Source of the DNA: Tannerella serpentiformis
GTDB taxonomy: Bacteria; Bacteroidota; Bacteroidia; Bacteroidales; Tannerellaceae
NCBI RefSeq assembly: GCF_003033925.1
Contig: NZ_CP028365.1
Coordinates: 1,364,001 to 1,428,000 of the forward strand
Length of the DNA: 64,000 nucleotides
Direction: 5' to 3'
Made by a program: the position numbers and the translations under genes. Position 1 is the first letter of the stretch, and every line of letters starts with the position of its first letter. The notes beneath the pieces were generated by a model. It searched no databases and was not told the DNA's origin. It saw only the letters and a program-made list of their open reading frames with translations. Of the stretch, positions 2,885 to 60,995 are shown piece after piece.

Positions 2885-3213
2885 GTCACTTTTTATTCGT
2901 GTAAATATTTCTCGCCTATTAAAAAGCCACTTTCTATTCGTGAGAATCTTTCTCGGCTATTAAAAGGTCACTTTTTATTCGTGAGAGTTTTTCTCAGCTA
3001 TTAAAAAGTCACTTTTTCATTTCTGACAAACTTATCTCAGTGATAATAAGCGGGCATTTATATCCTAATAATTTTTCGCACATACAAATTGTCACTTCCT
3101 ATTTGGTGAAATATTTTTCCTGCACAAAAAAGTGACCCGATAATTACTTTTCATAGTTGATTATCATAAAAAAGTGACCTGATAATTTCTAATCAGGGTA
3201 TCCTAGTAACTTC
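2885..3213. repeat. Tandem array, 41-42 bp period, AT-rich
   Basis: Part of the 874 bp gap between nusB and the aminotransferase gene. Units begin (GTCAC) at 2885, 2926, 2967 and 3008, exactly 41 bp apart. After one degenerate unit the word recurs at 3091, then inverted (GTGAC) at about 3132 and 3174. The junction AAAAAGTCACTTTTT is a perfect odd dyad, which explains why inverted units stay in register. I see no gene here. The rest of the gap (2641-2884, 3214-3360) shows no further feature. Confidence 0.85.
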
Positions 3214-3360
3214 GATTTTTACGTGGGGCTTTATATGGCTGAGGCCGCGAGATAATGCCCCATATCGGGGGCTCGCACAACGCGCTACACTGTTTGCAGT
3301 TAACTTTTTCCCCCGACGACAATCCGCAGGTCTTTTCCTCTTTGCTTTCTGAGGGAAACA

Positions 3361-3405
3361 AAAAAGGGCGCTGCCGAAATCTCTTTCGACAGCGCCCTTT
3401 CGGAC
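3361..3405 (-). terminator. Intrinsic terminator of the aminotransferase gene
   Basis: A 17 bp stem with one mismatch (AAAGGGCGCTG...CAGCGCCCTTT) and a 5-6 base loop lies 50 bp past the stop at 3452. On the minus strand it is followed by a run of T. It separates this gene from the tandem array and nusB. Confidence 0.8.
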
Positions 3406-3451
3406 TGCTTTGTAAAGTGTACGGCCAGCTTCCCCGACCTCGGCCGAGGCC

Positions 3452-4582
3452 CTATTTCTGGAAGAAGGCCTTGACGCGATCGGCGATATGGGTCACTTCT
3501 TCGTCTTTCATCTCGGCATGGATGGGCAGCGAGAGAACGTCGTGGGCGAGGCGGACGGATTCGGCCATGCTGCCGCAGGTCCGGGCGACCCACTTGTAGG
3601 CTTCTTGCTCGTGGATGGCTTTGGGGTAGTAGACCATCGAGGGGATGCCCTGCGAACGCAAGGCTTCGCGGAGGGCGTCGCGGCGGCCGTCGGAGACGCG
3701 GAAGGTGTACTGGTGAAAGACGTGCGTGGAGAACTTCGACCGGGCGGGGAGGCGCAGCCAAGGCAACGCGCGGAGACCCTCGTCGTAACGGTCGGCCACG
3801 GCGCGGCGGCGGCTGATGTCGTCGTCCATGTGGCGCAGATTGACGCGCAGGATGGCGGCTTGCAGGGCGTCGAGGCGGGAGTTGCGACCGATGGCGCGGT
3901 GGTCGTACTTGGCCGCCTGACCGTGGTTGGCCAGACAGCGGATACGCTCAGCCAGCTGGCTGTCGGCGGTGAAGACAGCGCCCCCGTCGCCATAGCAGGC
4001 CAGCGGCTTGGTGGGGAAGAAGGACGTCGTGCCGATGTGGGCGATAGTGCCTGCCTTGCGCGTGCGGCCGTCGGACGAGATATAGTCGGCACCGAGCGAC
4101 TGGGCGTTGTCCTCGATGACTCCGAGCTTATACTTCTTGGCCACGCGCAGGATCGGGTCCATGTCGCACGTCTGGCCAAAGAGGTGAACGACGACGATGG
4201 CCTTCGTCTGCCGTGACACGGCCTGCTCGACGAGTGCCGGGTCGATGTTGTACGTGTCCGGACGCACATCGATGAGCACGGGCGTGGCGCCCAGCAGGGC
4301 CACCATCTCAGCAGCGGCGATGTAAGTAAAGGCGGGCATGATGACCTCGTCGCCCGGCTGCACGCCGAGGGCACGGAGAGCCAGCTCGAGGGCGTCGGTG
4401 CCATTGGCGCAGGGGATGATGTGCGGGGCGTTGAGATACTGCCCCAATTCGCGGGTGAAAGTATCCACCTCCGGGCCACCGATGAAGCTGCCCGCAGCCA
4501 TGACGTCGGTCGTGGCCTTATCGATTTCAGACTTCAGGCGGGCGTAACGCCGCTTGAGGTCTACCATTTGAATCGTTTCCAT
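3452..4582 (-). CDS. DegT/DnrJ/EryC1/StrS sugar aminotransferase (WbpE-like)
   Basis: 376 residues, full length for this PLP-dependent fold-type I family, which aminates keto-sugar nucleotides for surface polysaccharide or LPS. Seen: the N-terminal QMVDLKRRYARLKSEID, IIPCANGTDALELAL (PLP phosphate binding), EDNAQSLGA with the PLP-contacting Asp near 158, and the Schiff-base Lys192 in TSFFPTKPLACYGDGGA, followed by GRNSRLDALQAAIL. The TSFFPTKPL and NSRLDALQAAIL segments are closest to WbpE/PorR-type enzymes (2,3-diacetamido sugar pathway), but the substrate cannot be fixed from sequence. It is flanked by metG, not by a polysaccharide cluster. Confidence 0.88.
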   Translation of the reverse strand: METIQMVDLKRRYARLKSEIDKATTDVMAAGSFIGGPEVDTFTRELGQYLNAPHIIPCANGTDALELALRALGVQPGDEVIMPAFTYIAAAEMVALLGATPVLIDVRPDTYNIDPALVEQAVSRQTKAIVVVHLFGQTCDMDPILRVAKKYKLGVIEDNAQSLGADYISSDGRTRKAGTIAHIGTTSFFPTKPLACYGDGGAVFTADSQLAERIRCLANHGQAAKYDHRAIGRNSRLDALQAAILRVNLRHMDDDISRRRAVADRYDEGLRALPWLRLPARSKFSTHVFHQYTFRVSDGRRDALREALRSQGIPSMVYYPKAIHEQEAYKWVARTCGSMAESVRLAHDVLSLPIHAEMKDEEVTHIADRVKAFFQK

Positions 4583-4630
4583 AAGAAGAAGCTGTTTGGA
4601 GTTATTGATTGGTCGTCACGAGGCAGTTCT

Positions 4631-6700: not shown

Positions 6701-6760
6701 AGGGGTGATCGATGTTGTACTGTTTATCTGTGTTCGTTTTCTCTCTGGGGTGGATGATCT

Positions 6761-8734: not shown

Positions 8735-8762
8735 CTCTCTGTCTGTATATCTGAATGTCGCG

Positions 8763-9141: not shown

Positions 9142-9275
9142 CACTCGCAATCGGACAAGATTTCGATCGCAGATAAACAAGATGAATAAGTACACGGTAG
9201 ATCAGAAATTTCCATTTATCAACTCGTAAGCGGTGCGGACAGCCTCCTCACTTCCTACACATCCCCCCAAACGAT

Positions 9276-13768: not shown

Positions 13769-14854
13769 ATGAAAACAACATTAAGAACCCTCTGCCTCAT
13801 GGCCCTCGTCGGCCTTATGGGCATGACCACCGAACGCGCCACGGCGCAGAAGAAAGAAAAGGTGATCCTGGACACCGACATGGTCGAAGTCTTTGACGAC
13901 GGCGTGGCCATGATGATGCTGGCCAAGGCGCCGAACATCGACCTCCTGGGCGTCACCATCGTCATCGGCAACACCTGGGTGCCCGAGGGCACCGCCTACG
14001 GCATCCGCCAGCTGGAGTGCGTCAATCGGACAGACATCCCCATCGTGCCCGGCATCCGCCAGCCGATCTATCCGAACCGCTTCGAGACGATCAAGAACGA
14101 GCGCATCCTCTTCGGCATCGGCGACGCCTACGTGGGCGCAGCCGGATACCCCGAGCCCGCCTCTTGGCGCGCCGTCTACCTCCAGAAGTACGGCCGCGAG
14201 CCGTCCGTACAGCCGCTCGACATGAAGGCCGTCAACTTCATCATCGACCGCGTCAAGGCCAACCCCGGCGAGGTGACCATCCTGGCCATCGGCACCTGCG
14301 TCAACCTGGCCACCGCCGTGCGCATCGCCCCCGAGATCGTGCCCCTCATCAAGCGCGTCATCTACATGGGCGGATCCTTCTTCCGCCCGGGTAACACCAC
14401 GCCCACGGCCGAGTTCAACTGGTGGCTCGACCCGGAGGCCGCCAAGATCTGCGTCCGCACGCCCTTCAAGGAGCAGGTGATCGTCGGGCTGGACGTCTGC
14501 GAGAAGATGGCCTTCCGCAAGGATCGCTACGAGCGGATCACGAACCTCGTCCGCAACGAGGGCATCAAGGGCATGATGAAGCGCAACTACCTGAACGTAA
14601 AATTCCTCGAGGAGCCCACCTATACGCACTACGTCTGGGACGTCATCGCCGCCTCCATCCTCATCGACCCCACCCTGATCCGCGAAGAGGTCAAGCGCTA
14701 CGTGGACGTCAACTCGCAGTTTGGCTTCTCCTACGGTCAGGCCCTGGCCTTCGACTCCAACCAGCCCGTCGGCAGCCAGCAGGCCCGCATCATCCTCACC
14801 GTCGACGAGCCTCGCCTCTGGTCGATGATCGAGAAATATTGCTCCGAGTTCTGA
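13769..14854 (+). CDS. Exported nucleoside hydrolase (IUNH family)
   Basis: 361 residues. The signal peptide (1-26, ending ERATA) puts the enzyme in the periplasm or envelope. The metal and ribose-binding start of the fold is ILDTDMVEVFDDGVAMMML, the DTD-x5-DD variant of the IUNH signature. Further segments are LLGVTIVIGNTWV, EVTILAIGTCVNLATA, VIYMGGSFF and the late conserved HYVWDVIAASILIDP (active-site His region). The family hydrolyses the N-glycosidic bond of nucleosides, and the exact base is not predictable. It fits purine/pyrimidine salvage from host nucleosides. Gene and following gap have very high GC. Confidence 0.88.
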   Translation: MKTTLRTLCLMALVGLMGMTTERATAQKKEKVILDTDMVEVFDDGVAMMMLAKAPNIDLLGVTIVIGNTWVPEGTAYGIRQLECVNRTDIPIVPGIRQPIYPNRFETIKNERILFGIGDAYVGAAGYPEPASWRAVYLQKYGREPSVQPLDMKAVNFIIDRVKANPGEVTILAIGTCVNLATAVRIAPEIVPLIKRVIYMGGSFFRPGNTTPTAEFNWWLDPEAAKICVRTPFKEQVIVGLDVCEKMAFRKDRYERITNLVRNEGIKGMMKRNYLNVKFLEEPTYTHYVWDVIAASILIDPTLIREEVKRYVDVNSQFGFSYGQALAFDSNQPVGSQQARIILTVDEPRLWSMIEKYCSEF

Positions 14855-15249
14855 CCCGAATGCACGTACCGGTGTAGGGGCGGGCGTCTGCGGACGCCAG
14901 CGAATTTGGCCGGGGCGTCTGCGGACGCCGGCGAATCTGGCCGGGTACCCGCCCCATCGGGGCGAATGACCGTAACGACGCACGTACCCGGCCAAACTTG
15001 GCTGGCGTCCCTGACGCCCCCCACGGGCCCGAATGGATGAACGCCGGGGGACGTGTATTCGCCACCGACGGTGGCGCCCGGTGGGGCGTATTCAATACGC
15101 CCCTACACGGGTACCCGCCCCAACGCCTCAACAAACCAACAATTCAACGGGCCTTTAGGCCCCCAAACGCATAAACACCTCAACAGGGCCTCAGCCCCCA
15201 AACGCATAAACAATCCAACAGGGCCTCAGGCCCCCAACGCATAAACAAT
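14855..15249. repeat. REP-like hairpin region
   Basis: A 395 bp gap with no gene. It is dense in GC-rich dyads: GGCGTCTGCGGACGCC, GGGGCGTATTCAATACGCCCC and the recurring phrase GTACCCGGCCAAACTT, then several AAC/CCTCA...GGGCCTCAGGCCC hairpins up to the next start codon. The same words recur in every gap to 22.2 kb. Confidence 0.75.
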
Positions 15250-15711
15250 ATGAAATACATCATCCTACAGCGGGCCAACCCGCAAGATCGCCGCAAGGCC
15301 AAATGGTACGCCACGCCCCTCTTAGAGCGCCGCGTGCGTCAGGCCGAGCTCACCGGCCAGCTGACCGAGAGCCTCGGCATCCGTTACGGCATCGTCCGTA
15401 AGATCATCCAAGTCTTTCTCGAGGCCGTCGTGCGCCACCTCCTCGCCGGGCGCAGCGTCTGCCTGCGCCCCTTGGGCACGCTCCGCATCTCCTTCACCAG
15501 CGACGGCATGGAGGAGCCCGAGCGCGTCACCCCGGACATGATCCGCGACATGAAGATCGTCATCACCCCCGACAAGCTCTTGAAGGAGCAGCTCAGCAAC
15601 CTGCACTTCGAGCTGCACGAAGACCCCGCCGCCGCAGCCTCCTCTCCCCACGAGTCGGTCGTCGAGATGATGCCCAGAGCATACCCCCGGGCGTCCCAGC
15701 CCTGGTTATGA
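15250..15711 (+). CDS. HU-family DNA-binding protein (Bacteroidota HU-like)
   Basis: 153 residues. MKYIILQRANPQDRRKAKWYATP then helices (RQAELTGQLTESLGIRYG, VRKIIQVFLEAVVRHLLAGR) and the beta strand VCLRPLGTLRISF match the longer HU-like proteins of Bacteroidetes, which are extended at both ends compared with 90-residue HU. Nucleoid binding is the family role. The last ~12 residues (PRAYPRASQPWL) are read from REP-like DNA, so the native end may have been altered by insertion of that DNA. It lies directly upstream of the transposase unit. Confidence 0.78.
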   Translation: MKYIILQRANPQDRRKAKWYATPLLERRVRQAELTGQLTESLGIRYGIVRKIIQVFLEAVVRHLLAGRSVCLRPLGTLRISFTSDGMEEPERVTPDMIRDMKIVITPDKLLKEQLSNLHFELHEDPAAAASSPHESVVEMMPRAYPRASQPWL

Positions 15712-15731
15712 TCCGCCGGGTGGTCAGGCCC

Positions 15732-15915
15732 CCCAGGGGTTCGCCCCGATCGTCCACACGCGAGGGGTTTCGCCCCGATCGTCCACACACCAGGGATTTC
15801 GCCCCCCCAGGGTTTCGCCCTGGGCTATGGTACACCGGGCCTACAGCCCGGCCGGGTACAGGGGAGCGCCCTGTAGGGGCGCCGGATCATAGCCAGGGGC
15901 GAAACCCCTGGGCGC
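15732..15915. repeat. Left REP-like flank of the transposase
   Basis: About 184 bp containing four hairpins with complementary loop pairs (TTTCG/CGAAA and CTACA/TGTAG). It is nearly identical to 16486-16669. Related dyads continue to about 15955. Confidence 0.8.
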
Positions 15916-15991
15916 CGGACCATAGCCCAGGGCGAAACCCTGGGCGGCTCCCGGCCGGATTGATTGAACGAATAAATAATGAATAGAGATC

Positions 15992-16450
15992 ATGCCACAG
16001 TCATTATCGAAACTGTATATCCACACGGTGTTTCATATCAAATCCACAAGCGTCACCATCCGCAATGAAGATCGCGGCGCCCTATACGAATACATGGGTG
16101 GCATATTGAATCATATCGGGTGCCTGCCGATACGGATTAATGGTGTGGACGACCACGTGCACCTGCTTTGCCTCTTGTCAAGAACCGTCTCAACGGCGAA
16201 AATGATGGAAGAGGTGAAGCAGCGGAGCAGCTGTTGGATCAAAACCATAGACCCTCGTTACTACCGCTATTTCGCCTGGCAGAACGGATATGGTGCTTTT
16301 TCCGTCAGCCCGTCGCTTGTTGAACGCGTAAAGAAATACATCGACAATCAAGAGGAGCATCACCGTACGACAACCTTTCGCGATGAGTACGTGGCCATCC
16401 TCAAGGATCACGACGTACCATTTGATGAGGACTACTTATGGACAGATTAG
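15992..16450 (+). CDS. Y1 (HUH) transposase, REP-associated/IS200 type
   Basis: 152 residues, the right size for single-domain TnpA. The HUH motif is His55-Val-His57 in GVDDHVHLLC, and the catalytic tyrosine is Tyr115 in VKKYIDNQEEHH, the signature helix of the family, followed by TTTFRDEYVAILKDH. The usual tail DEDYLWTD is present, so the protein looks intact. Y1 enzymes cut and join single-stranded DNA at hairpins, and this one sits between REP-like blocks. The gene is clearly lower in GC than its flanks, which suggests a separate origin. Confidence 0.9.
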   Translation: MPQSLSKLYIHTVFHIKSTSVTIRNEDRGALYEYMGGILNHIGCLPIRINGVDDHVHLLCLLSRTVSTAKMMEEVKQRSSCWIKTIDPRYYRYFAWQNGYGAFSVSPSLVERVKKYIDNQEEHHRTTTFRDEYVAILKDHDVPFDEDYLWTD

Positions 16451-16485
16451 ATGCCACGCGGGGGCGCTCCCCCGTACCCGGCCCG

Positions 16486-16669
16486 CCCAGGGGTTTCGCC
16501 CCGATCGTCCACACGCCAGGGGGTTCGCCCCGATCGTCCACACACCAGGGGGTTCGCCACCCAGGGTTTCGCCCTGGGCTATGGTCCACCGGGCCTACAG
16601 CCCGGCCGGGTACAGGGGAGCGCCCTGTAGGGGCGCCGGATCATAGCCAGGGGCGAAACCCCTGGGCGG
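16486..16669. repeat. Right REP-like flank of the transposase
   Basis: Near-identical direct copy of 15732-15915. The rest of the gap (16670-16891) is GC-rich with GGCGTCCGCAGACGCC and the phrase GTACCCGGGCTAACTTCCCT followed by a CCTCGGCAGAGG hairpin. No gene is seen there. Confidence 0.8.
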
Positions 16670-16891
16670 CGAAACCCCGGCGTCCGCAGACGCCCCCGAC
16701 GCCTCGGAAAGGCTCAAACAAGTTGTTTCAACGTTTCCGACGCCTCGGAAAGGCAGGGAAGCCGGTCGGGTACCCGTCCCCTGCACGTACCCGGGCTAAC
16801 TTCCCTGCCTCGGCAGAGGCTGTCCGCAGACACCCCCCGAGCCGTTTTTCACGAACAGAATCAAGAACTATCACTCTTAATCCCAGATTTT

Positions 16892-32595: not shown

Positions 32596-32617
32596 GCGGA
32601 CAGAGAACAGCCCCGCC

Positions 32618-32690
32618 ATTCCCGATTGAGCCCCGTTTCCGCCTGGAAACAGCCCCGTAATTCCGGATTAACGTGAGTTCGGTGTAAGAA
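32618..32690. repeat. Family A 42 bp tandem units (2 copies)
   Basis: ATTCCCGATT at 32618 and ATTCCGGATT at 32660 are 42 bp apart. Each unit holds the dyad GTTTCC-GCCT-GGAAAC. The same family occurs at 33180-33345 (same orientation) and 46478-46605 (inverted). Confidence 0.8.
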
Positions 32691-32784
32691 TAAAACCAGC
32701 AGAGAGTTTCTACGGAAGCCTGGCCAAAACGTTTTTGGAAATGCCTACAACACTGCGACAAATGCTTCGGAGAACTTTTTGGCG

Positions 32785-33060
32785 TTTGCGGTACTCCCGC
32801 AAGTCTCGTGGCGTTTGCTTTGGCGTTTGCGGGTACTCCCGCAAGTCTCGCGGCGTTTGCTTTGGCGTTTGCGGGTGCTCCCGCAAGTCTCGCGGCGTTT
32901 GCTTTGGCGTTTGCGGGTACTCCCGCAAGTCTCGCGGCGTTTGCTTTGGCGTTTGCGGGTACTCCCGCAAGTCTCGCGGCGTTTGCTTTGGCGTTTGCGG
33001 GTACTCCCGCAAGTCTCGCGGCAAATGCCAGGACGTTTGCGGGAGTCCCGCAAGAGCGCT
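32785..33060. repeat. Tandem array, 42 bp period, seven copies
   Basis: Units begin (GTACTCCCGC) at 32791, 32833, 32875, 32917, 32959, 33001 and 33043. Each carries the dyad TTGCGGG-TACT-CCCGCAA. Because 42 is a multiple of three and there are no stops, several frames stay open on both strands giving 14-residue repeats. That is a by-product, as I see no start or flanking protein-like sequence. It lies in the convergent gap between the island and the polyprenyl synthase gene. Confidence 0.9.
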
Positions 33061-33179: not shown

Positions 33180-33345
33180 CACGTCGGATTACAGCGTGTT
33201 GCTCGGAAGAAACAGGCCGGAATTCCCGATTTGGGCGTGTTGCTAAGAAGAAACACAGCGGAATTCCCGATTACGGCATATTCCTCCAGAAGAAACGGGG
33301 CGGAATTCCGGATTGAGGCACGTTTCCGGGTGGAAATGTGTGCGA
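33180..33345. repeat. Family A 42 bp tandem units (4 copies)
   Basis: The CGGATT/ATTCC(C/G)GATT word falls at about 33180, 33222, 33263 and 33305, spaced 41-42 bp. Units share GAAGAAACA and GGAATTCCCGATT. They are related to 32618-32690 and 46478-46605. Confidence 0.8.
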
Positions 33346-40324: not shown

Positions 40325-41401
40325 TTAAGCGTCTGTTTGTTGAAGGTTTTCCAAATACGATTTGAGCGTCACACCTGCTTCAGTTTTCCATACATCATAG
40401 CCGTTGCTGCTTTGCCCCAAGCAGGCGCCGGAGGCTCCGCTCGGAGTTTTGAATACAAGATCCTCATTGAGTACATATTTCTCATCACCGCACAGCGTGC
40501 AATGCTTCAACATCTCGACTCGTGCACTGCCGCCTTTAGTGTTGCTCTCTTTTACTGAGATCTCTGATCCTTTCAGTACGACGAAAGACTTCGTCCCGTC
40601 ATTCAGCGGATAGCCTCGTGCCACACAAGTTTGCTTGGTATGTTTTAAGAAGAACAATGGGGGCTGATTGGCAACCGGCCGCGACACGCTGGTGTCTAGT
40701 GAAAACGTTTTGACGACCGGTTGCGGCGTAACGGGAGCAGGCAAAACGGTTTTATCGGTTGACCGCGGTACAACAGCCTCTATTGAAAATGTTTTAGCAG
40801 CCGGCTTCGGTTCGATAGGCTCTGATGAAACCGCTTCGGTAACTGATTTCGAAGCAGTAGACTCTATTGAAAACGTTATCTCTTCCTGCAAAGAAGCATC
40901 TGCTTGCGCGCTCATCTTTGTAAAGACAAAGCATCGCTCGTATTCGAGAAAAAACTTGATCTCCTCAAATATTTTGTCGTACTCAGAGCTATCCCCCTCT
41001 TGCAAAATCGGTTTCGTCGGCCTTTGCCCGTTTTCCGACAAGTCATACGCCCCGGTTGCCAATCCTTCGCGAATAGCCAGATACTCTAAATATGTAATGC
41101 TGGCTTGGTCGTATTGGTTGGAACCCGAAACAAAGACGTATGCCCGCGTCCACCATTCCTTATTCCTTACATGAGTTTTTCCACGGTCTCTAAAATGACC
41201 TGTCTGCCCGATATAGGCTTTTCTTCCCTCATCCACGAGCAAATAGAGACAGGGGCGATTCATTTCTTCGATTTTGGAGAGGTCGGCTATTTCGCAAAAG
41301 CGACGCGAAAGCACGGTCATCACACAATCCAACTTGCCCTTCCTTACCTTTTGATGATCATGTGGATTATCTGTATGGATAATCACGTTCAGTTTACTCA
41401 T
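40325..41401 (-). CDS. GIY-YIG nuclease-domain protein with DUF4357-like C-terminus
   Basis: 358 residues. GIY-YIG half-sites are CLYLL (51-55) and AYIG (62-65), with conserved Arg71 and Arg73, and Glu106 in YLEYLAI, so the nuclease site looks complete. The middle (~170-240) is a low-complexity linker with three imperfect TFSIE/TFSLD units. The C-terminal ~95 residues (ARGYPLNDGTKSFVVLKGSE, NEDLVFKTPSGASGACLGQS, DVWKTEAGVTLKSYL) match DUF4357. Proteins with this pair are often linked to defence or mobile DNA. The codon use is AT-richer than prfA or purM, and it lies between them, so insertion by transfer is likely. Confidence 0.85.
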   Translation of the reverse strand: MSKLNVIIHTDNPHDHQKVRKGKLDCVMTVLSRRFCEIADLSKIEEMNRPCLYLLVDEGRKAYIGQTGHFRDRGKTHVRNKEWWTRAYVFVSGSNQYDQASITYLEYLAIREGLATGAYDLSENGQRPTKPILQEGDSSEYDKIFEEIKFFLEYERCFVFTKMSAQADASLQEEITFSIESTASKSVTEAVSSEPIEPKPAAKTFSIEAVVPRSTDKTVLPAPVTPQPVVKTFSLDTSVSRPVANQPPLFFLKHTKQTCVARGYPLNDGTKSFVVLKGSEISVKESNTKGGSARVEMLKHCTLCGDEKYVLNEDLVFKTPSGASGACLGQSSNGYDVWKTEAGVTLKSYLENLQQTDA

Positions 41402-41494
41402 ATTCTTATTTCTATTGTTTGATATCTATGTTGATAAACTGGTCCAAAGGTCCATCTTTCTTCTGATTTCTACCTCTTCCATCTTCCGGAAGTG

Positions 41495-41765
41495 GTTGCA
41501 ACAGTGTTGCAAACGCCAGAAAGTTTTTCGTGAGACTTGCAACAGTGTTGCAAACGCCAGAAAGTTTTTCGTGAGACTTGCAACGGTGTTGCAAACGCCA
41601 GAAAGTTTTTCGCGGGACTTGCAACGGTGTTGCAAACGCCAGAAAGTTTTTCGCGGGACTTGCAACAGTGTTGCAAACGCCAGAAAGTTTTTCGTGAGAC
41701 TTGCAACGGTGTTGCAAACGTCAAAAAGTTTTTCGCGGGACTTGCAACGGTGTTGCAAACACTTT
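41495..41765. repeat. Tandem array, 41 bp period, seven copies
   Basis: GTTGCAAAC starts at 41506, 41547, 41588, 41629, 41670, 41711 and 41752, exactly 41 bp apart. Each unit carries the dyad TTGCAAC-AGT-GTTGCAA (or CGGT variant) and CAGAAAGTTTTTCG. It lies between the GIY-YIG gene start and the purM stop, both on the minus strand. The rest of the gap (41402-41494) has no feature. Confidence 0.9.
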
Positions 41766-42934
41766 CAATACCGGAACTCCCCAAACTCACTGCGGATGAT
41801 CAATTCCTTTCGCTCAGCAGACTCTACGCGACCCACAATGCGGGCGTCGATGCCGAACGATCGACTGAGGGCGATGACTTCTTCTGCTCGCTGGGCGTCT
41901 AAGTAGACCTCCATGCGGTGGCCCATGTTGAAGACTTTGTACATCTCAGCCCAGTCTGTGCCGCTCTGCTCGCGGATGATGCGGAAGAGGGGCGGTAGGG
42001 GGAAGAGGTTGTCTTTGACGACGCGCATGTCGTCGCCGATGAAGTGGAGGATCTTCGTCTGCGCACCGCCAGAGCAGTGCACCATGCCGTGGATCTCGGG
42101 GCGCATGGCGTCGAGCAGGGCCTTGACGACGGGAGCGTAGGTGCGCGTGGGAGAGAGGACGAGGCGGCCGGCATCTACGTTGAGGCCTTCGATGGCGTCC
42201 GTGAGGCGGAGACCACCGGCGTAAACGAGATCGTCAGGAACGGCGGCGTCAAAACTCTCGGGGTATTTCTCGGCCAAGTAGTGGGCGAAGACATCATGGC
42301 GCGCGCTGGTGAGTCCGTTGCTGCCCATGCCGCCGTTGTAGGCATGCTCATAGGAGGCTTGACCGAAAGAGGCCAATCCGACGATGACGTCGCCAGGGCG
42401 GATACGCGCATTGTCGATCACATCGGCGCGGCGCATGCGGCAGGTGACGGTGCTATCGACAATGATCGTGCGTACCAAATCGCCCACGTCGGCCGTCTCA
42501 CCGCCCGTGGCGTAAACGCCGATGCCCATCTCACGCAGCTCGGACAGCAGCTCGTCTGTGCCGTTGATGATGGCTGAGATCACCTCGCCGGGGATCAACA
42601 GTTTGTTACGCCCGATGGTGCTTGAGACAAGGATGTTGTCCGTGGCGCCGACGCAAAGCAGGTCGTCGATGTTCATGATCAGCGCGTCCTGTGCAATGCC
42701 CTTCCAGACGCTGAGGTCGCCCGTTTCGCGCCAGTATAGATAAGAAAGCGCCGACTTAGTGCCGGCGCCATCAGCGTGCATGATGTTGCAGTAAGCAGGA
42801 TCAGCACCCAGTATGTCAGGGATGATTTTGCAAAAGGCCTTCGGGAAAAGGCCCTTGTCGATGCGTCGGATGGCGTTATGCACGTCTTCTTTCGAAGCGC
42901 TGACGCCGCGCCGTGTGTACCGTTGGTCGCTCAT
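41765..42934 (-). CDS. purM: Phosphoribosylformylglycinamidine cyclo-ligase (AIR synthase)
   Basis: 389 residues, in the long Bacteroidales form. MSDQRYTRRGVSASKEDVHN starts it, and the AIRS fold is visible: HADGAGTKSALSY, QDALIMNIDDLLCVGA, YATGGETADVGDL and GMVHCSGGAQTKIL. It closes the imidazole ring of AIR in purine synthesis. The last part overlaps the following array closely. The preceding frameshifted wall-hydrolase frame runs 59 bp into its start. Confidence 0.93.
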   Translation of the reverse strand: MSDQRYTRRGVSASKEDVHNAIRRIDKGLFPKAFCKIIPDILGADPAYCNIMHADGAGTKSALSYLYWRETGDLSVWKGIAQDALIMNIDDLLCVGATDNILVSSTIGRNKLLIPGEVISAIINGTDELLSELREMGIGVYATGGETADVGDLVRTIIVDSTVTCRMRRADVIDNARIRPGDVIVGLASFGQASYEHAYNGGMGSNGLTSARHDVFAHYLAEKYPESFDAAVPDDLVYAGGLRLTDAIEGLNVDAGRLVLSPTRTYAPVVKALLDAMRPEIHGMVHCSGGAQTKILHFIGDDMRVVKDNLFPLPPLFRIIREQSGTDWAEMYKVFNMGHRMEVYLDAQRAEEVIALSRSFGIDARIVGRVESAERKELIIRSEFGEFRY

Positions 42935-44655
42935 TATTGTTTTGTCTTCTGAGGGTAGACGTTTTCTGCGGTGTTTTGGGTTCTTTTTTCTGAGAAGCCT
43001 GAGGGGTAGTCTTCTTGACGAGAGCCGTCTTGGCTGCAGGCTTAGCCGTCGGCTTTGCGGCAGTGGCTTTGGCTGCTGGTTTGGCAGCAGACTTTGTGGC
43101 CGGTTTAGCGGCGGGCTTAGCGGCAGTCGGTTTGGCGGCCGGCTTAGCAGCGGGAGTCTTCGCCTTATTAACGACAGAAGCCGCAGGCTTCTTTGCCTGC
43201 GGCGCGCGCTGATCTTTAGGAGTGACCTTTTTCGTTGGAGTCGCTTTAGACTTCTCCGACGATGCCACGAGCTTACCTGACTGTTTCTTCGGTGTCGGGG
43301 CAGGCTTCTTCGCGGCGGGTGGGGAGACGGCTTTCTTCGTCGCCACCGGTTTCTTGGCGCTGGCTATGGCTGACTTCTTGACGGCAGTCGCAGGCTTTTT
43401 TACAGCAGCAGCGGCCTTCGGATCGGCTGCGGGTTTCGCAGTAGGCTTGGGAGTCCACGCTTTCGGGGCAGAGGCCGGTTTCTTAGTGTCAGCCGGAGCT
43501 GGCTTTTTCGCAGCAGCGGCTTTCGGATCGGCAGCTGGTTTCGCAGTAGGCTTGGGAGTCCACGCTTTCGGGGCAGAAGCCGGTTTCTTAGTGTCAGCCG
43601 GAGCTGGCTTCTTGGCAGCCGCAGCTTTCGGATCGGCGACGGGTTTCGCAGCAGGCTTGGGAGCATCTGCTTTGGGGGTAGGAGCCGGTTTCTTAGCGTC
43701 AGCCGGAGCTGGCTTCTTGGCGGCCGCAGCTTTCGGATCGGCTGCGGGTTTCGCGGCAGGCTTAGGAGCATCTGCTTTGGGAGCAGGGGCTGGTTTAGCA
43801 GCTGGAGCAGCTTCCTTTTTCGGTGCAGGTTTCGCCGGAGCAGGTTGGGCAGCTGGCTCTTTTTGAGCTTTGGGTGCGGCCGCTTCCGGTTTCGATTTCT
43901 TGGGCACCTTGATACCGTGGGCTGTGGGCTTCGTTCCCGGCTCACGTTGCGTGGCGGCAGCGGGTTTAGTTTCCGCAGGTTTCTTGCGCTCCGGCTTTAC
44001 CTCGGGTGAGGTGGCGGGACGCTTGGCCGGTGCCGATGGTGTGGAGACGCTCCTTGCGGGTCTCGAGGCGATGGGTTCGGAGGACGAGGCACTGGCCAGG
44101 TCATAGGCGTGCAGCTCGTAACGCTCAATCAGCTCGATCAGCTTACTGGCATACTTGGGATCGGAGGCGTAACCACATCGTTTCAATCCATGCGCCCAAC
44201 CCACATAGTCTGTTGGCTTGAGCTCAAAGAGCGACTTGTAGTGCGCTCTGTCAGCGATGAAGTGCGAGTGATCTTCGTAGGATTGTTCTACGGAGGTGTA
44301 CTTACGAAAGCGTTCCAAGCGACCATCATCCATCTTGTTTATAGAGATAGTCACCCGTCCAGTTTCCGCATTTGATACCGAAGTGGTTGTTACCCTGAAT
44401 CGCCAGGTAACTTTTCCCTGCGCTCGATTCAAGGATACCCTGTGCCAAGGTAATACTGGCAGGTATACGATGTCTGGTCTGCTGATGGATAGCAGCCTGA
44501 TGATAAGCCTGGATATACTCTTCACAAGCATCCAAATTTCGAACTTCTGTTTTGCCAGCCTCCATGCGTTCGACGAGCACGGGGCTACTGGCAAGCGTAA
44601 TACAGCCTATAATAACGGCAAGACGATATAGTGATAATGTACGTGGGCGCATCAT
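42876..44655 (-). pseudogene. Glucosaminidase-domain protein with Lys/Ala/Pro tail, frameshifted
   Basis: Two frames make one product. Frame 1 (start 44655) gives a signal peptide and the first part of a GH73-type domain: PASITLAQGILESSAGKSYL with the catalytic Glu, then NNHFGIKCGNW, ending at TGA near 44327. Frame 2, one base off, continues with DDGRLERFRKYTSVEQSYED, HYKSLFELKPTDYVGWAHGL and an Ala/Lys/Pro tail of ~350 residues. Compared with the intact paralogue at 44670-45734 (WDDDLKDECFRKY) one extra base is present, most simply in the CC at 44330-44331. The tail contains ~35-residue repeats (PADTKKPASAPKAW, PKPTAKPAADPKAAAA), like histone H1. A sequencing error, a true mutation or slippage are all possible. 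Confidence 0.7.
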
Positions 44656-46318: not shown

Positions 46319-46362
46319 GTAGAGGATAGAGGGTAGAGGGTAGAGGGTAGAGGGTGGAGGAT
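46315..46362. repeat. Heptanucleotide microsatellite (AGAGGGT)n
   Basis: About five imperfect AGAGGGT units right at the cdd stop, starting inside its last codons. Slippage could shift only the 3' end, so an effect on cdd is unlikely. Confidence 0.7.
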
Positions 46363-46477
46363 AGAACAGAGGCTTCTTGTCGGTCGTGTATGGCTGATGG
46401 GGAGCCTTTTTTCTGTGTCTCTCGCTTGGGAATGTATGCTGCCCGGTGCAAAAAGGGCTTGTCGCTTGGATGAGATA

Positions 46478-46605
46478 GGCCTGTAATCCGGAATTCCAGC
46501 GTATTTCTTCCTAGAAACAGGCCCGTAATCCTGAATTACGGCGTGTTTCTTCTTAGCAATGGGCCTAAATCGGGAATTACGGGGCGTTTCTCTACCTGCT
46601 TTTCT
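46478..46605. repeat. Family A 42 bp tandem units, inverted (3 copies)
   Basis: GGCC words at 46478, 46520 and 46562, 42 bp apart. The dyad GTTTCT-TCCT-AGAAAC and GGAATTCCAGC recur. The reverse complement matches 33180-33345 (CCCGATTTAGG, CTAAGAAGAAACA). Rest of the cdd-topB gap: a dispersed element at 46595-46690 and a GAGGCTGCCTCGGTGAGGCC dyad. No gene is seen. Confidence 0.8.
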
Positions 46606-46767: not shown

Positions 46768-48531
46768 ATGAGACTTTGCATTGCGGAGAAGCCGAGCGTG
46801 GCTCTGGAGATTGCGCGTGTGCTGGGGGCAAACACGCGGCGAGATGGGTTTTATGAGGGCAACGGCTACGTGGTCTCATGGACCTACGGCCACCTCTGCA
46901 CGCTGAAGGATCCGGGCGACTACACGCCGGCGTGGAAACGCTGGGATATGCGCTGCCTACCGATGATCCCGCCACGATTCGGCATCAAGCTGATCGAGGA
47001 GGAGCATTGCATGCGGCAGTTTCGCGTGCTGGAGGCTCTCATCGCGAAGGCTGACGAGGTGATCAACTGCGGCGACGCGGGTCAGGAGGGGGAACTGATT
47101 CAGCGTTGGGTAATGCAGAAGGCGCGTTGCCAGTGCCCCGTGAAACGGCTCTGGATCTCATCGCTCACGGAGGAGGCCATCCGCGAGGGCTTCCACCGAC
47201 TCAAGGACGCCTCGGCCTACCAACGACTCTACGAGGCGGGTCTGGCGCGCGCCATCGGCGACTGGCTCCTGGGCATGAATGCCACACGACTCTACAGCCT
47301 ACGCTTCGGTGGGCCCGGACGCGTGCTCTCCATCGGACGGGTGCAGACGCCCACGCTGGCCCTGATCGTCCGTCGGCAGCGCGAGATCGAGGCATTCCGG
47401 CCGGAGCCGTTTTGGGAGCTGAAGACCGTCTATCGCGATGTCACCTTCACGGCCTCCCGCGGACGGTTCGCAAAGAAGGAGGAGGGCGAGGCGCTGCTGC
47501 GTGCCATCGAGGGGCAGCCGTTCACCGTGACCGATGTCACGAAAAAGAAGGGCCGTGAGGCGCCCCCGAAGCTCTTCGACCTGACCTCGCTGCAGGTGGA
47601 GTGCAACCGCCGTTTCTCGCTCTCAGCCGAGGAGACACTGCGCCTGATCCAATCTCTCTATGAGAAGAAGGTGACCACCTACCCGCGCGTGGACACGACG
47701 TACCTCAGCGAAGATCTTCACCCGAAGGTGTCCGGAATATTGAAAGGGATGACCGATTACGCCGCCCTGACCGCACCACTCACCGCTGCACCGATCGCGA
47801 AGAATAAGCGGGTGTTCGACAACAAGAAGGTGACGGATCACCACGCCATCATCCCCACCGGTACGGCCGCACCAGCAGGGCTTTCGGCCGATGAGCGACG
47901 GGTGTACGACATTGTGGCACGACGTTTCATTGCCGCTTTTTATCCCGACTGTGAGGTCGCAACAACGACCGTCACGGGCGCCTCTGCCGAGGTCGATTTC
48001 CGAGCCACCGGTCGGCAGATTCTGAAGCCAGGATGGCGCACCGTCTTCGAGCGGGAGGGCAGCAAGAAGGAAGAGAAGGCGGAGGAGGAAGAGGCGGAAG
48101 AATCCGTGCTGCCAGCCTTCCGAAAAGGCGAGAGCGGGCCACATCGGCCATCGCTCGTAGAGAAACAGACCACCCCGCCAAAGCCCTACACCGAGGCCAC
48201 GCTGCTCCGGGCCATGGAGACGGCCGGCCGTTTCGTGGACGACGAGGCACTCCGTGAAGCAATGAAGGAGAATGGCATCGGCCGACCCTCCACGCGTGCG
48301 AACATCATCAAGACACTGCTCAAGCGCGATTATATCCGCCGTGAGCGGAAGCATTTGGTGGCCACCCCGACGGGTGTCAGCCTGATCGACACCATCCACG
48401 AGGAGCTGCTGAAGAGCCCCGAGCTGACGGGCCAATGGGAGCGTAAGCTCCGCGGCATCGAGCAAGGCAGCTACGAAGCCTCGGCCTTCCTCACGGAGCT
48501 CAAGGAGATGGTAGCAAGAATTGTGCGGTAG
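46768..48531 (+). CDS. topB: DNA topoisomerase III (type IA)
   Basis: 587 residues from ATG 46768 (MRLCIAEKPSVALEIARVLG). Longer frames upstream run through repeat DNA. Toprim is VVSWTYGHLCTL with NCGDAGQEGELIQRW. The cleavage domain follows with GMNATRLYSLRFGGPGRVLS, and the catalytic tyrosine is in TTYPRVDTTYLSE. NGIGRPSTRANIIKTLLKRDYI comes near the end. It ends soon after this without zinc ribbons, about 100 residues shorter than many Bacteroidales TopB. It decatenates DNA and resolves intermediates. Confidence 0.93.
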   Translation: MRLCIAEKPSVALEIARVLGANTRRDGFYEGNGYVVSWTYGHLCTLKDPGDYTPAWKRWDMRCLPMIPPRFGIKLIEEEHCMRQFRVLEALIAKADEVINCGDAGQEGELIQRWVMQKARCQCPVKRLWISSLTEEAIREGFHRLKDASAYQRLYEAGLARAIGDWLLGMNATRLYSLRFGGPGRVLSIGRVQTPTLALIVRRQREIEAFRPEPFWELKTVYRDVTFTASRGRFAKKEEGEALLRAIEGQPFTVTDVTKKKGREAPPKLFDLTSLQVECNRRFSLSAEETLRLIQSLYEKKVTTYPRVDTTYLSEDLHPKVSGILKGMTDYAALTAPLTAAPIAKNKRVFDNKKVTDHHAIIPTGTAAPAGLSADERRVYDIVARRFIAAFYPDCEVATTTVTGASAEVDFRATGRQILKPGWRTVFEREGSKKEEKAEEEEAEESVLPAFRKGESGPHRPSLVEKQTTPPKPYTEATLLRAMETAGRFVDDEALREAMKENGIGRPSTRANIIKTLLKRDYIRRERKHLVATPTGVSLIDTIHEELLKSPELTGQWERKLRGIEQGSYEASAFLTELKEMVARIVR

Positions 48532-48532
48532 T

Positions 48533-48640
48533 CAACTTGGCCAGCATCCCTGAGGTCCTGAAGTACCAGGCCAACTTGGCTGGCGTCCCTAAGGTCTTGA
48601 AGTACCAAGAAAACTTGGCTGGCGTCCCTGACGCCTTGAT
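48533..48640. repeat. 39 bp tandem repeat (3 copies)
   Basis: AACTTGGCTGGCGTCCCT-type units at 48533, 48572 and 48611, 39 bp apart. They merge into GCCTTGATCTTCTTTTGCTT. This is the array nearest to but not at the 41-42 bp period. Confidence 0.75.
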
Positions 48641-48690
48641 CTTCTTTTGCTTCTTTTCTTCTATCAAGGGAAGAAAAGAAGGTAATGAGA
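48640..48690. repeat. Dispersed hairpin element (copy 4)
   Basis: TTGATCTTCTTTTGCTTCTT then CTATCAAGGGAAGAAAAGAAG, a dyad. It matches 39033-39085 closely. Confidence 0.65.
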
Positions 48691-52445: not shown

Positions 52446-52504
52446 CTTCTCTCTTCTATTATTATGATCGTCTAATACATTCTTCCCGTTAAAATCCTTA
52501 ACAG

Positions 52505-52735
52505 ATCACTCATTGACTGTTGTCAATGGCATGCAAAACGCGTTTTAGATGCCTCTGACTAATGTCAATGGGATAAAAAACGCGTTTTAGATGCCTCTGA
52601 CTGCTGTCAATGGGGTGAAAAATGCGTTTTAGGTGCCTCTGACTGCTGTCAATGGGATAAAAAACGCATTTTAGATGCCTCTGACTGCTGTCAATGGGCA
52701 GAAAACTCGGGGGAGCAACCCATTGACAACCGTCA
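52505..52735. repeat. Tandem array, 42 bp period, four to five copies
   Basis: GCCTCTGACT/GGTGCCTCTGACT units at 52551, 52593, 52635 and 52677, 42 bp apart, after a partial unit at about 52509 (CATTGAC-TGTT-GTCAATG). Each unit has TGAC-TGCT-GTCA and a second palindrome AAAACGCGTTTT. It fills the uvrC-dtd gap. No gene seen. Confidence 0.9.
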
Positions 52736-56464: not shown

Positions 56465-56494
56465 CTTGCTTGTAACTCCTACTTATAACGATTA

Positions 56495-56527
56495 CAAAGG
56501 TACGCCCGCGGCCAAATCCCTGCAAAA
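56495..56527 (-). promoter_or_regulatory. Consensus Bacteroidota promoter of mnmG
   Basis: On the minus strand TTTTG (56527-56523), 20 bp, TACCTTTG (56502-56495): both boxes and the spacing match TTTG-N20-TAnnTTTG. Leader of about 25 nt. Confidence 0.8.
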
Positions 56528-56559
56528 TAGCGCCTCAACGGCCTCTCTATCCGGTTGAA

Positions 56560-57545: not shown

Positions 57546-57646
57546 CTTATTCAGCGATGGGCTGGGTATAAAGCAACGGCGGCGACAAGGAACTGCTCCC
57601 CATCGCCGCCGTGACTGTACGTATAAAGGTGTGTGCCCCCCTGTGC

Positions 57647-59147: not shown

Positions 59148-59167
59148 ATTTCACTTTCTTATTTGAG

Positions 59168-60178
59168 TTATTCCTCTTCATCCAAATACTCCTCCTTGAA
59201 GATGTTGACCAGCAGGAAGAACATCGAGATCAGCAGTGGGCCGAAGATGATGCCCCAGAAGCCGAATAGGGACAGGCCGAGGATGACACCGAAGACGGTG
59301 ATCAGTGGGTGAGTGTCGGCCAGACGTTTCTGGAGGATGAAGCGCACCACGTTGTCGATGTTGATCAGTATGATGGAGCAGTAGGCCGCCAGACCCGCCG
59401 CATCGACCCATCGGCCAAGGATCAGCAGGTAGACAACGAGCGGTACCCACACGATGCTCGTCCCGATGATCGGAATAATCGTCGCAAAGCACGTCAGGAC
59501 GGCAAAGAGCAGTGCACTCGGCAGGTCGAAGAAAAGGTATGCCGCGTAGGCCACCAGTCCCTGCACGATGGCCAGCAATGGGATTCCCACGGCATTCGAC
59601 CGCACCATCCGGTAGATCTCGTTAACCACCCGCAGCCGGTGCTCCTCCTTGAACGGCAGCAGCTCGTAGACATAGCGCTCGATGCGACGGAAGTCCACCA
59701 GAATGAAATAGAGGAAGAAGACGAGCACGACGAGTGTCACCGCCATGCTGCTCACCTGCCCGATCACGTACTGCACGCCGCGACTCATGTATCCCGTGGC
59801 CATCGTCAGATTGTCGAACGTGAAGAGGTCGTAGCCGAAGCGCCGCTTGATCTGCCGGTCAATGTCGTCCACCATCTGCTGCAGACCCGAAATGTCCATG
59901 TTGATATGCTGCACCCGTTCGACCGTCATCCAGCCAATCAGCGTCAGCGGCCCCAGGATCATCACGGCTACCTCAATAAGCACCACCACCGTGGCCAAGA
60001 CCCGCGGCCAGTGCCACCGCTCTGTCAGCGTGATCATCTGCCCACGTACGAGCACAAAAATCGTGAACGCTCCCAGCAGTCCGCTGACAAACGCCCACAG
60101 TTCACCCACAATCAGCGCCCCCAGCCCCAAAATGAGCGTGACGAGCGAATACTTCCAATACTTCTCTTTCGTTGACAT
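59168..60178 (-). CDS. AI-2E family transporter (PerM-like)
   Basis: 336 residues with eight or so membrane segments, among them YSLVTLILGLGALIVGELWA, ALLFAVLTCFATIIPIIGTS and GLSLFGFWGIIFGPLLISMF. The last matches the family's G-x-x-G-(I/F)-x-G-P-L motif. The family includes putative autoinducer-2 exporters and Na+(Li+)/H+ antiporters, so the substrate is not known. It ends 20 bp before the antitoxin gene start on the same strand. Confidence 0.88.
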   Translation of the reverse strand: MSTKEKYWKYSLVTLILGLGALIVGELWAFVSGLLGAFTIFVLVRGQMITLTERWHWPRVLATVVVLIEVAVMILGPLTLIGWMTVERVQHINMDISGLQQMVDDIDRQIKRRFGYDLFTFDNLTMATGYMSRGVQYVIGQVSSMAVTLVVLVFFLYFILVDFRRIERYVYELLPFKEEHRLRVVNEIYRMVRSNAVGIPLLAIVQGLVAYAAYLFFDLPSALLFAVLTCFATIIPIIGTSIVWVPLVVYLLILGRWVDAAGLAAYCSIILINIDNVVRFILQKRLADTHPLITVFGVILGLSLFGFWGIIFGPLLISMFFLLVNIFKEEYLDEEE

Positions 60179-60283
60179 TGATTCTTCCTTTTGATAGGCC
60201 CATTCTACATGGCCCGCACATTATATAACGTATAAAAATCGCCTGTTTGCAGCCCAAAAGTAGCCCAAACCGAGGCTCCGCTG

Positions 60284-60440
60284 CATTTCTTTTTGTCCAA
60301 AAGCCCCATCTGTGCTTGACGACAAGACTTTTGGGCGAAAAGGACGTCTGCCCGTGCCTCGTGGCAATACTTCTGGAAAAAAAGGAGGCCTGTCGATGCC
60401 TTGAGACAGGAGTTCTTGGAAAAAAAGAAGCCGATCTTCT
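60284..60440. repeat. 42 bp tandem units, inverted arm (4 copies)
   Basis: Units at about 60284, 60326, 60368 and 60410, each 42 bp (GACTTTTGGGCGAAAAGGACG and TACTTCTGGAAAAAAAGGAGG). Their reverse complement matches the arm at 60829-60990. Confidence 0.8.
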
Positions 60441-60489
60441 GGTTCTGATCCTATCATATTTCGAGATATGGTAGAGATTGAGACCTTGT

Positions 60490-60800
60490 TTTATACTTCA
60501 TCTTAGGATATATAGGTGTATGAAATCAGGTTTGAAGTGTATCTCAAAATATATGTCCGTATGAGGGTATGTAGATACTTCATTTTGAAATACGCTATAA
60601 GATGGGTGTTCGAATTGAACTGCATTTTTTTATGAGATAGAATATGAATCACGTATTTGATACGTATTTTGGAATGAGATAGTAGCGTATGATCGGATTA
60701 GATCTTATTTTGAGATGAGCTATTGGCGGAATATAGGATAGATACGTATCTCAAAATGAATAATCAATCTATGCTTCATTTTGCACCATATTTCCAGATA
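60490..60800. repeat. Degenerate AT-rich array, 41-42 bp spacing
   Basis: CATTTTGAAAT-like words at 60581, 60623, 60665 and 60706 (spacing 42, 42, 41), and the inverted ATCTCAAAAT at 60541 and 60748. Surroundings are 30-35% GC. A less regular unit falls near 60500 and 60777. Confidence 0.65.
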
Positions 60801-60828
60801 TAGAACAATATGAACAAGGTTTCGAGGT

Positions 60829-60995
60829 TCCTTTTTTTATAGACCTATTGTCGCGAGGTGCTGGCGGGCCTCCTTTTTCTCCAGAGGTACTGTCATGAGG
60901 CATTGACGGATCTCCTTTTTTCCCAGAGGTGCTGCCACGAGGTGTTGGCTGGTCTTCTTTTTCTCCAGAGGTACTGTCACGAGGCGGTTTCAGGG
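60829..60995. repeat. 42 bp tandem units, direct arm (4 copies)
   Basis: CCAGAGGT at 60881, 60923 and 60965, 42 bp apart, with a degenerate unit before (about 60839). The whole 60.28-61.0 kb region is two arms in opposite orientation around an AT-rich centre. No gene is seen in 60179-61179. Confidence 0.8.

What the first reader, a model, noticed from the sequence alone, without database searches (positions are those of the whole stretch)
2885..60995. Eight intergenic tandem arrays share a 41-42 bp unit length though most units are unrelated
Seen: arrays at 2885-3213, 32618-32690, 32785-33060, 33180-33345, 41495-41765, 46478-46605, 52505-52735 and 60284-60995. Spacings are 41 or 42 bp in every one. 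Unit sequences differ except for family A (32.6, 33.2 and 46.5 kb). Most have a dyad per unit: TTGCGGG-TACT-CCCGCAA, TTGCAAC-AGT-GTTGCAA, CATTGAC-TGTT-GTCAATG, AAAAAGT-C-ACTTTTT and GTTTCC-GCCT-GGAAAC. 42 bp is four turns of B-DNA, so repeated sites would face one side of the helix. The arrays lie in divergent, convergent and same-strand gaps, so they are not simply terminators. Inference: a common mechanism, such as a nucleoid protein binding in phase, a slippage process of fixed length, or a set of small RNAs. I know of no described system with a fixed period across unrelated units.
Basis: partly seen in the sequence, partly recalled or inferred. Interest (0 to 1): 0.85.

Follow-up and report, generated by a model that had tools for sequence, protein, structure and literature searches.

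The report
Genome-wide helix-phased palindromic tandem arrays
The gaps between genes in this Tannerella-like bacterium hold many short DNA arrays whose sequences mostly differ but whose repeat length is nearly always 41-42 bases (four turns of the double helix) with a mirror-symmetric layout, which points to one unknown process shaping them.

Summary
In a 40% sample of the 3.01 Mb genome plus the window, 118 of 259 tandem arrays (TRF score >=100) have period 41 or 42, with harmonics at 82/84 and 123/126. Noncoding self-match is 17,923 and 16,445 bases at lags 41 and 42, but 0-71 at 37-39. 187 noncoding arrays form 84 unit families. Across 73 family representatives the units share a template: a strong dyad, symmetry about a second axis exactly half a period away, G+C at the axis and quarter points, A+T 14 bp out. 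Mean period/4 is 10.40 bp. Genus relatives (apparently termite-gut Tannerella sp. MAGs) carry 21, 42, 63 and 84 bp arrays, so the step looks like about 21 bp, two turns. Sampled stretches of four order-level outgroups (400 kb) hold one array. One array sits in a gene pair that is tight and array-free in 14 of 16 relatives examined. Arrays tend to begin and end with a whole main dyad. Coding, RNA-hairpin and RAYT explanations fared badly in tests. I favour a DNA-level, helically phased dyad system; the agent is unknown.

The parts
2884..3213 (.). Array, 41 bp (3.3 good copies at 2884-3017), then degenerate 42-bp copies at 3122-3199 that look inverted (by eye); dyad AAAAAGTCACTTTTT
32606..32690 (.). 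Weak 42-bp array, under two copies, family A; not reported by TRF
32778..33054 (.). Array, 42 bp x 6.6; dyad TTGCGGG-TACT-CCCGCAA; member of the TTGC..GCAA superfamily; 35 BLAST matches in the own genome at E<=0.01 (itself included); at E<=0.001, 24 in the own genome and none in 40 genus relatives
33187..33314 (.). Array, 41 bp x 3.1, family A
41496..41760 (.). Array, 41 bp x 6.5; dyad TTGCAAC-NGT-GTTGCAA; lies between an AIRS-family gene and a DUF4357 gene
46477..46591 (.). Array, 42 bp x 2.8, family A
48531..48644 (.).
52514..52698 (.). Array, 42 bp x 4.4, in the 287-bp gap (52446-52732) between uvrC and the D-Tyr-tRNA deacylase gene; the same gap is at most about 111 nt and array-free in 14 of 16 relatives examined
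60284..60450 (.). Degenerate 42-bp copies at the left of the 60.3-61.0 kb array
60870..60985 (.). Array, 42 bp x 2.8, right end of the 60.3-61.0 kb array

Best explanation
The arrays work at the level of double-stranded DNA. Each is a run of dyad-symmetric sites placed an even number of helical turns apart: about 21 bp in some relatives, 41-42 bp here. Repeated sites therefore face one side of the helix, and the array as a whole has two-fold symmetry about axes half a period apart. Arrays grow and are homogenised in place by unequal exchange or slippage, and new ones appear in gaps between genes. What keeps the length fixed while sequences diverge is, in this reading, a symmetric, sequence-tolerant DNA-binding protein that favours dyads spaced by two-turn steps, so that only in-phase arrays are stabilised. 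Shown here: the fixed period, the shared dyad template, mainly noncoding placement, 21-bp steps in relatives, absence of one array from a conserved gene pair in 14 of 16 relatives, a preferred phase of array borders. Inferred: the protein, its one-face binding, the direction of change (gain here, not loss elsewhere), and any benefit to the cell.
For: Period peak at 41/42 with harmonics. 187 noncoding arrays in 84 families. Over 73 family representatives against dinucleotide shuffles: best dyad 6.26 v 5.39 of 8 pairs (sd 0.08); symmetry at exactly half a period +1.23 v 0.01 (sd 0.15); A+T at 14 bp 0.72 v 0.49 (z 5.9); G+C at the axis (A+T z -4.3) and at 10 bp (z -3.8); mean period/4 = 10.40 over 187 arrays. 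29 of 187 arrays carry TTGC-N6..12-GCAA with 20 different inner sequences, several with both arms changed together. 48 of 92 doubly changed dyad cells still pair, against about 31 if bases were random. Relatives: 22 of 30 arrays within 1 bp of 21n. All four gap orientations are used in proportion to the gaps. The UvrC-DTD array is absent in 14 of 16 relatives. Array borders favour whole main dyads at both ends, as expected if the dyads are the units that are kept.
Against: No protein was identified. HU-family and HU-HIG genes are not unusually numerous here: 5 and 3 matches. No strong base motif is shared by the 42-bp families, and A+T shows no 10- or 21-bp autocorrelation in units, so a protein would have to read symmetry and weak composition only. 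In a tandem array an axis at half a period is the same symmetry as the outer arms of the first dyad, so it is one signal, not two. Single-sided changes in dyads (422 cells) far outnumber doubly changed ones (92, of which 48 pair). The edge effect is small and not monotonic: 0.876, 0.893, 0.907, 0.911, 0.896, 0.900 from the edge inwards. A perfect 5-pair dyad was found in 18% of 11 relatives' 20-23 bp units (5.5% in shuffles). The border phase favours a module-handling enzyme at least as much as a binding protein.
Confidence: 0.4

Rival explanations
1. A recombinase, transposase or other enzyme with a two-turn ruler makes the units: it copies or duplicates dyad modules of about 21 bp and spreads them, so the length reflects the enzyme and not selection on binding.
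For: 132 of 147 same-unit array pairs at different loci share no similarity in non-array flanks. Half-units occur with different partners: 19 of 155 array pairs with a close half share only that half. Array borders have a preferred phase, with a whole main dyad at both ends: the favoured eighth of the period holds 36 of 126 left and 34 of 126 right borders (15.75 expected each); with one border per family (56 families) the median P is 0.04.
Against: The only Y1 (RAYT-like) transposase match of this genome sits among a different repeat family of 29-36 bp. No Y1_Tnp was found in G014 (draft, 99% complete), which has 21/22/41/44/63-bp arrays. Both 41 and 42 (and some 40 and 43) occur, unlike a rigid ruler. 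Lack of flank similarity could be old divergence of noncoding DNA, and border phase could arise because TRF stops where conservation stops. No candidate enzyme was found.
Confidence: 0.3
2. Neutral replication slippage or unequal exchange in a genome with weak selection in gaps; hairpins and helical phase make some duplications likelier, with no dedicated protein and no function.
For: Arrays are mainly noncoding, tolerated in every gap orientation, somewhat more degenerate at edges, with higher-order periods.
Against: Slippage alone does not predict one length over 84 families, nor the shared A+T/G+C template. Odd numbers of turns are nearly absent: 0 noncoding bases at lags 52-53, 129 and 124 at 31-32, against about 17,000 at 41 and 42. 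Stretches of four order-level outgroups, presumably with similar replication machinery, have one array in 400 kb.
Confidence: 0.19
3. The arrays are transcribed and act as tandem RNA hairpins (terminators, mRNA protection or small RNAs).
For: Dyads could fold on either strand, and some look like terminators. In convergent gaps G-U-type mismatches (27) outnumber A-C-type (19).
Against: On the sense strand of same-direction gaps G-U-type mismatches (79) do not exceed A-C-type (94). Arrays per gap over 150 bp are similar in divergent (34 of 77) and convergent (31 of 62) gaps. No Rfam match in the window. No transcription data were available.
Confidence: 0.07
4. The arrays encode repetitive peptides.
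For: 65.9% of 41-bp units have at least one fully open strand, against 20.7% of mononucleotide shuffles.
Against: Against dinucleotide shuffles the excess nearly vanishes: 0.66 v 0.56 for all, 0.50 v 0.44 by family. 41 is not a multiple of 3. A home-made coding model puts 214 of 227 arrays in noncoding DNA.
Confidence: 0.02

Closest known systems
REP / BIME elements with RAYT (TnpA-REP) transposases
   Same: Short intergenic palindromic repeats, many copies, sometimes in arrays
   Different: REPs are 20-40 bp repeats of few sequence families, tagged at one end and tied to RAYT (titles and starts of abstracts of PMC2817692 and PMC3733652, listing). Here there are 84 families with one period, and Y1_Tnp was not found in an array-bearing draft genome of the genus
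BrickBuilt MITE minisatellite of Porphyromonas gingivalis (PMC4596501; start of abstract, passages)
   Same: Intergenic tandem repeats in a member of Bacteroidales, 23 nt (about two turns)
   Different: In those passages, a 23-nt repeat within an element with leader and tail; not many unrelated units. The term '41 bp' does not occur in the main text
Eukaryotic satellite DNA with nucleosome-length units (PMC8122249; start of abstract in the listing)
   Same: Many unit lengths match a chromatin length rather than a sequence
   Different: About 170 bp and nucleosome-bound (recalled); here 41-42 bp in a bacterium, agent unknown. Analogy only
Bacterial VNTR / minisatellites (PMC9426551, passages, links intergenic tandem repeats to deletions in Planctomycetota)
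   Same: Intergenic tandem repeats that can grow and shrink by slippage
   Different: A common unit length across loci is not part of that class (recalled)

Membership tests
REP/BIME with RAYT | RAYT/Y1 transposase present where the repeats are | tested here: not met
   Y1_Tnp matches in 17 of 41 genus genomes (own included); none in G014 (draft, 99% complete), which has the arrays
REP/BIME with RAYT | One tagged palindrome family (GTAG/CGTC-like) | tested here: not met
   84 families at shared-12-mer linkage; no strong common base motif across the 42-bp families. The GTAG and CGTC tags themselves were not searched for
BrickBuilt MITE | Array embedded in a dispersed element with leader and tail | tested here: not met
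   132 of 147 same-unit pairs lack flank similarity; of six pairs inspected, three lie in gene-scale duplications
CRISPR | Repeats separated by unique spacers | tested here: not met
   Units of the window arrays follow head to tail without spacers
Known structured RNAs (Rfam 15) | Match at gathering score | tested here: not met
   0 matches in the window; other arrays not searched
Bacterial minisatellite (descriptive) | Tandem units of 10-100 bp | tested here: met
Bacterial minisatellite / VNTR | Copy number varies between strains | not tested
   No second strain of this species was compared

The most novel reading that the evidence does not exclude
A bacterial counterpart of nucleosome-phased satellite DNA: a sequence-tolerant protein or enzyme, at work in this genus, imposes two-turn (about 21 bp) dyad modules on unrelated intergenic DNA genome-wide, so that about 16% of the sampled DNA between called genes in this species is organised as helically phased, mirror-symmetric lattices that begin and end with whole dyads.
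Probability: 0.4. Interest if true: 0.93.

Novelty: categorically new. Interest (0 to 1): 0.8.

Why it matters
Bacterial repeat classes known to me are defined by a shared sequence. Here the shared property is a length and a symmetry, over many unrelated sequences, with a mean period of four times 10.40 bp. If a protein sets it, it would be a new chromatin-like organiser in bacteria. If an enzyme makes it, it would be a new DNA-copying activity with a helical ruler. Either way it makes testable what fixes minisatellite unit length. It may also explain why short-read genomes of this group break: several contig ends seen here lie in such arrays.

Tried and rejected
RNA hairpins: not supported by the G-U test or Rfam. 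Coding: the apparent depletion of stops in 41-bp units nearly disappears against dinucleotide shuffles. RAYT as driver: not found in an array-bearing draft genome. HU or HU-HIG expansion: not seen. Intrinsic curvature by phased A-tracts: no A+T autocorrelation at 10 or 21 bp. Arrays as parts of mobile elements: 15 of 147 pairs share flanks; of six pairs inspected, three (L050/L056, L050/L025, L027/L012) lie in gene-scale duplications, and whether these are among the 15 was not listed. A first flank comparison gave 458 similar pairs, but it had counted neighbouring array DNA; one search masked repeats. A looser family clustering (shared 10-mer) chained 138 arrays together; I judged most of that to be chance chaining and used the 12-mer linkage.

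Re-run with mirrored ends, it shows a preferred phase. This moved a point from against to for the enzyme rival; odds changed from 0.42 to 0.40 (binding), 0.27 to 0.30 (enzyme) and 0.20 to 0.19 (slippage). I had also taken array sequences as unshared between species; one search shows that 4 of 22 relatives' arrays have similar arrays in this genome.

Literature: nine searches listed no paper that I recognised as describing a fixed period over unrelated bacterial arrays; only the listed titles and starts of abstracts were seen, plus passages of four papers. No preprints and few subscription papers are held.
Full report
WHAT WAS CHECKED. The eight arrays were read in register and with Tandem Repeats Finder. 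Each has its best lag at 41 or 42 above the 99th percentile of shuffle maxima, although 32.6 kb is weak and the middle of the 60.3-61.0 kb array is degenerate. A 39-bp noncoding array at 48.5 kb is an exception.

GENOME-WIDE. The window is 1364001-1428000 of a single 3,013,500-bp contig. I took 60 alternating 20-kb stretches and added the window: 61 pieces, 1.264 Mb. Of 342 collapsed arrays with score >=50, 61 have period 41 and 59 have 42; at score >=100 it is 60 and 58 of 259, with 6 at 40, 10 at 43, and harmonics at 82 (10), 84 (19), 123 (10) and 126 (5). A lag profile counts noncoding bases matching at each distance: 17,923 at 41, 16,445 at 42, 2,348 at 40, 1,990 at 43, 0-71 at 37-39. Other peaks are smaller: multiples of 7 (1,179 at 14, 1,132 at 21), which I put down to heptamer repeats, and multiples of 22 (850 at 22, 806 at 44). 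With a home-made coding model (75% called coding; approximate, it missed for example the DUF4357 gene at 40325-41401) 214 of 227 arrays found by lag are noncoding; the 13 coding ones have period 42 or 45. Gap orientation around arrays (-- 71, ++ 61, -+ 34, +- 31) follows that of all gaps over 150 bp (162, 133, 77, 62). Arrays occur in 0 of 172 gaps of 50-150 bp, partly because they would not fit, and in 59 of 87 gaps of 600-1000 bp, and make up 46,792 of 293,495 bases between called genes. Counts per 20 kb are near random (mean 2.98, variance 2.46).

ANATOMY. 187 noncoding arrays (score >=100, period 38-46) form 84 families when linked by a shared 12-mer; the largest has 41 arrays. 28.9% have a dyad of at least 8 of 9 pairs, against 1.1% of mononucleotide shuffles. 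Over 73 family representatives of period 41/42, against dinucleotide-preserving shuffles, the best dyad is 6.26 of 8 pairs (null 5.39, sd 0.08), symmetry at exactly half a period is raised by 1.23 pairs (null 0.01, sd 0.15), the axis and the points 10 bp away are G+C rich, and the points 14 bp away are A+T rich (0.72 v 0.49, z 5.9). In a tandem array the half-period axis is the same symmetry as the outer arms of the main dyad, so this is one dihedral symmetry. Mean period/4 is 10.40 bp. The 41-bp families share a weak base preference; the 42-bp families little beyond the same G+C axis, T at 5 and A at 14. Within the TTGC-N-GCAA superfamily (29 of 187 arrays) 20 different inner sequences occur, several with both arms changed together. 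The 32.8 and 41.5 kb window arrays are relatives of this kind. Among array pairs with one close half-unit, 84 share both halves, 52 are intermediate and 19 share only one.

DYNAMICS. In indel-free arrays of at least six copies, copies are slightly less like the consensus at the edge (0.876) than three copies in (0.911), though the next two positions are 0.896 and 0.900. Array borders are not at random phase: in 126 arrays of 56 families with a dyad of at least 6 of 8 pairs, the favoured eighth of the period, placed so that a whole main dyad begins and ends the array, holds 36 left and 34 right borders (15.75 expected each); taking one border per family the median P is 0.04. This may reflect how arrays are made, or that dyads resist decay at the edges where TRF stops. 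Of 147 same-unit pairs at different loci only 15 share non-array flanks. Between uvrC and the D-Tyr-tRNA deacylase gene this genome has 287 bp with a 42-bp array. I examined 16 relatives (14 fetched, two, out of 30 with a match to the deacylase protein): 14 have at most about 111 nt and no 21n array, one had no stop found in the piece (G017), one had no uvrC there (G022). Beyond the AIRS gene, 5 of 6 relatives start what reads as a release-factor gene within some tens of bases, where this genome has an array and a DUF4357 gene (read from the printed sequence). Gain here is a simpler reading than repeated loss.

RELATIVES. The closest named loci are Tannerella sp. MAGs whose isolate codes suggest termite guts (the source is inferred). 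Three contigs of the numbered genus genomes have the exact lengths of such named contigs, so the genus appears to be this one. The family at 32.8 kb is not seen elsewhere: at E<=0.001, 24 matches in the own genome and 0 in 40 genus relatives. But 4 of 22 relatives' arrays compared match an array of this genome at 67-77% identity, so some families are older than the species. The step is shared more widely. In three named MAG contigs (L069, L070, L074, the last only 51% identical in the query protein; L071-L073 dropped because they duplicate numbered contigs) plus stretches of 11 genus assemblies (661 kb in all), 22 of 30 arrays of period 18-130 and score >=80 lie within 1 bp of a multiple of 21 (crude binomial P 4e-12; some may be coding, and two rows in L198 are one unit). 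G010 has peaks at 21, 42, 63, 84, 105 and 126. Not all relatives are rich in them: 212 kb of G027 held one 41-bp array and four weaker ones of 21-22 bp, and 20 kb of G026 none. Contigs end inside arrays (L212, L213, L227, L228), so short-read assemblies may understate them. Stretches of four order-level genomes (400 kb) have one array at score >=60, of 62 bp, itself close to three times 21. In 74 other loci, mostly Bacteroidales by title (1.18 Mb), a few 41-44 bp arrays occur, for example in Hoylesella enoeca and Alloprevotella tannerae, so the tendency may be older and weaker outside this genus.

MECHANISM. RNA-level and coding explanations did poorly in their tests. Y1 transposase seems not to be needed. 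What remains is a DNA-level constraint on helical phase and symmetry. I think a symmetric, sequence-tolerant protein acting on two-turn steps is likeliest (0.40), then an enzyme with a ruler (0.30), then undirected slippage with structural bias (0.19). No protein was found, and no base signature of phased bending was seen.

NOVELTY. None of REP/BIME, BrickBuilt, CRISPR or Rfam families passes its membership test, and nine searches of the held papers listed nothing that I recognised as this. The descriptive word minisatellite applies, but does not explain a length shared by 84 unit families. The organism itself is not identified beyond its relatives; the related Synergitannerella mixotrichae (3.16 Mb, 268 contigs, 48.4% G+C; PMC12483993, start of abstract, passages) is a different genome, since this one is a single contig of 3.01 Mb with 57.6% G+C in the window.

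Noticed in passing
window 14880-16680: A Y1_Tnp (RAYT-like) gene (15992-16450) and an HU-HIG gene (15250-15711) amid 29-36 bp repeats, many palindromic; the 2-kb piece 14700-16700 has 139 matches in the own genome (itself included), so a separate REP/RAYT-like system seems to coexist.
   Followed up: partly
window 46319-46365; L043 16487-16711 and others: A second repeat type, heptamers such as GTAGAGG, probably gives the genome's lag peaks at 14, 21, 28, 35.
   Followed up: no
L009 17659-17982, L038 2118-2315, L047 19838-19988; relative L165 292-570: A 22/44-bp repeat type (also about two turns) whose arrays in this genome resemble one in relative G014 (72-75% identity for L165 464-570 v L009 and L038).
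   Followed up: partly
window 43405-43768: A 105-bp (35-codon) tandem array of 3.5 copies within a long minus-strand ORF, possibly a coding repeat; no Pfam match in the overlapping piece searched.
   Followed up: partly
window 40325-41768: A DUF4357 gene and an array lie between an AIRS-family gene and a release-factor gene that appear to be close neighbours in 5 of 6 relatives examined.
   Followed up: partly
L027 5379-5561, L012 5685-5868: Arrays of the GGCAGGCCGCCTGCC family follow what reads as a tyrosine recombinase gene (judged by eye) in duplicated gene blocks.
   Followed up: partly
L109 446-608, L120 5518-5599, L124 14086-14197, L080 5883-5966, L081 6663-6782: Occasional 41-44 bp arrays in other loci, mostly Bacteroidales, some with dyads: a possible order-wide tendency.
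   Followed up: no
41-bp arrays genome-wide: Where one strand of a 41-bp array is at least 95% open, in same-direction gaps it is the antisense strand 20 times and the sense strand 10 times; unexplained and not clearly significant.
   Followed up: no
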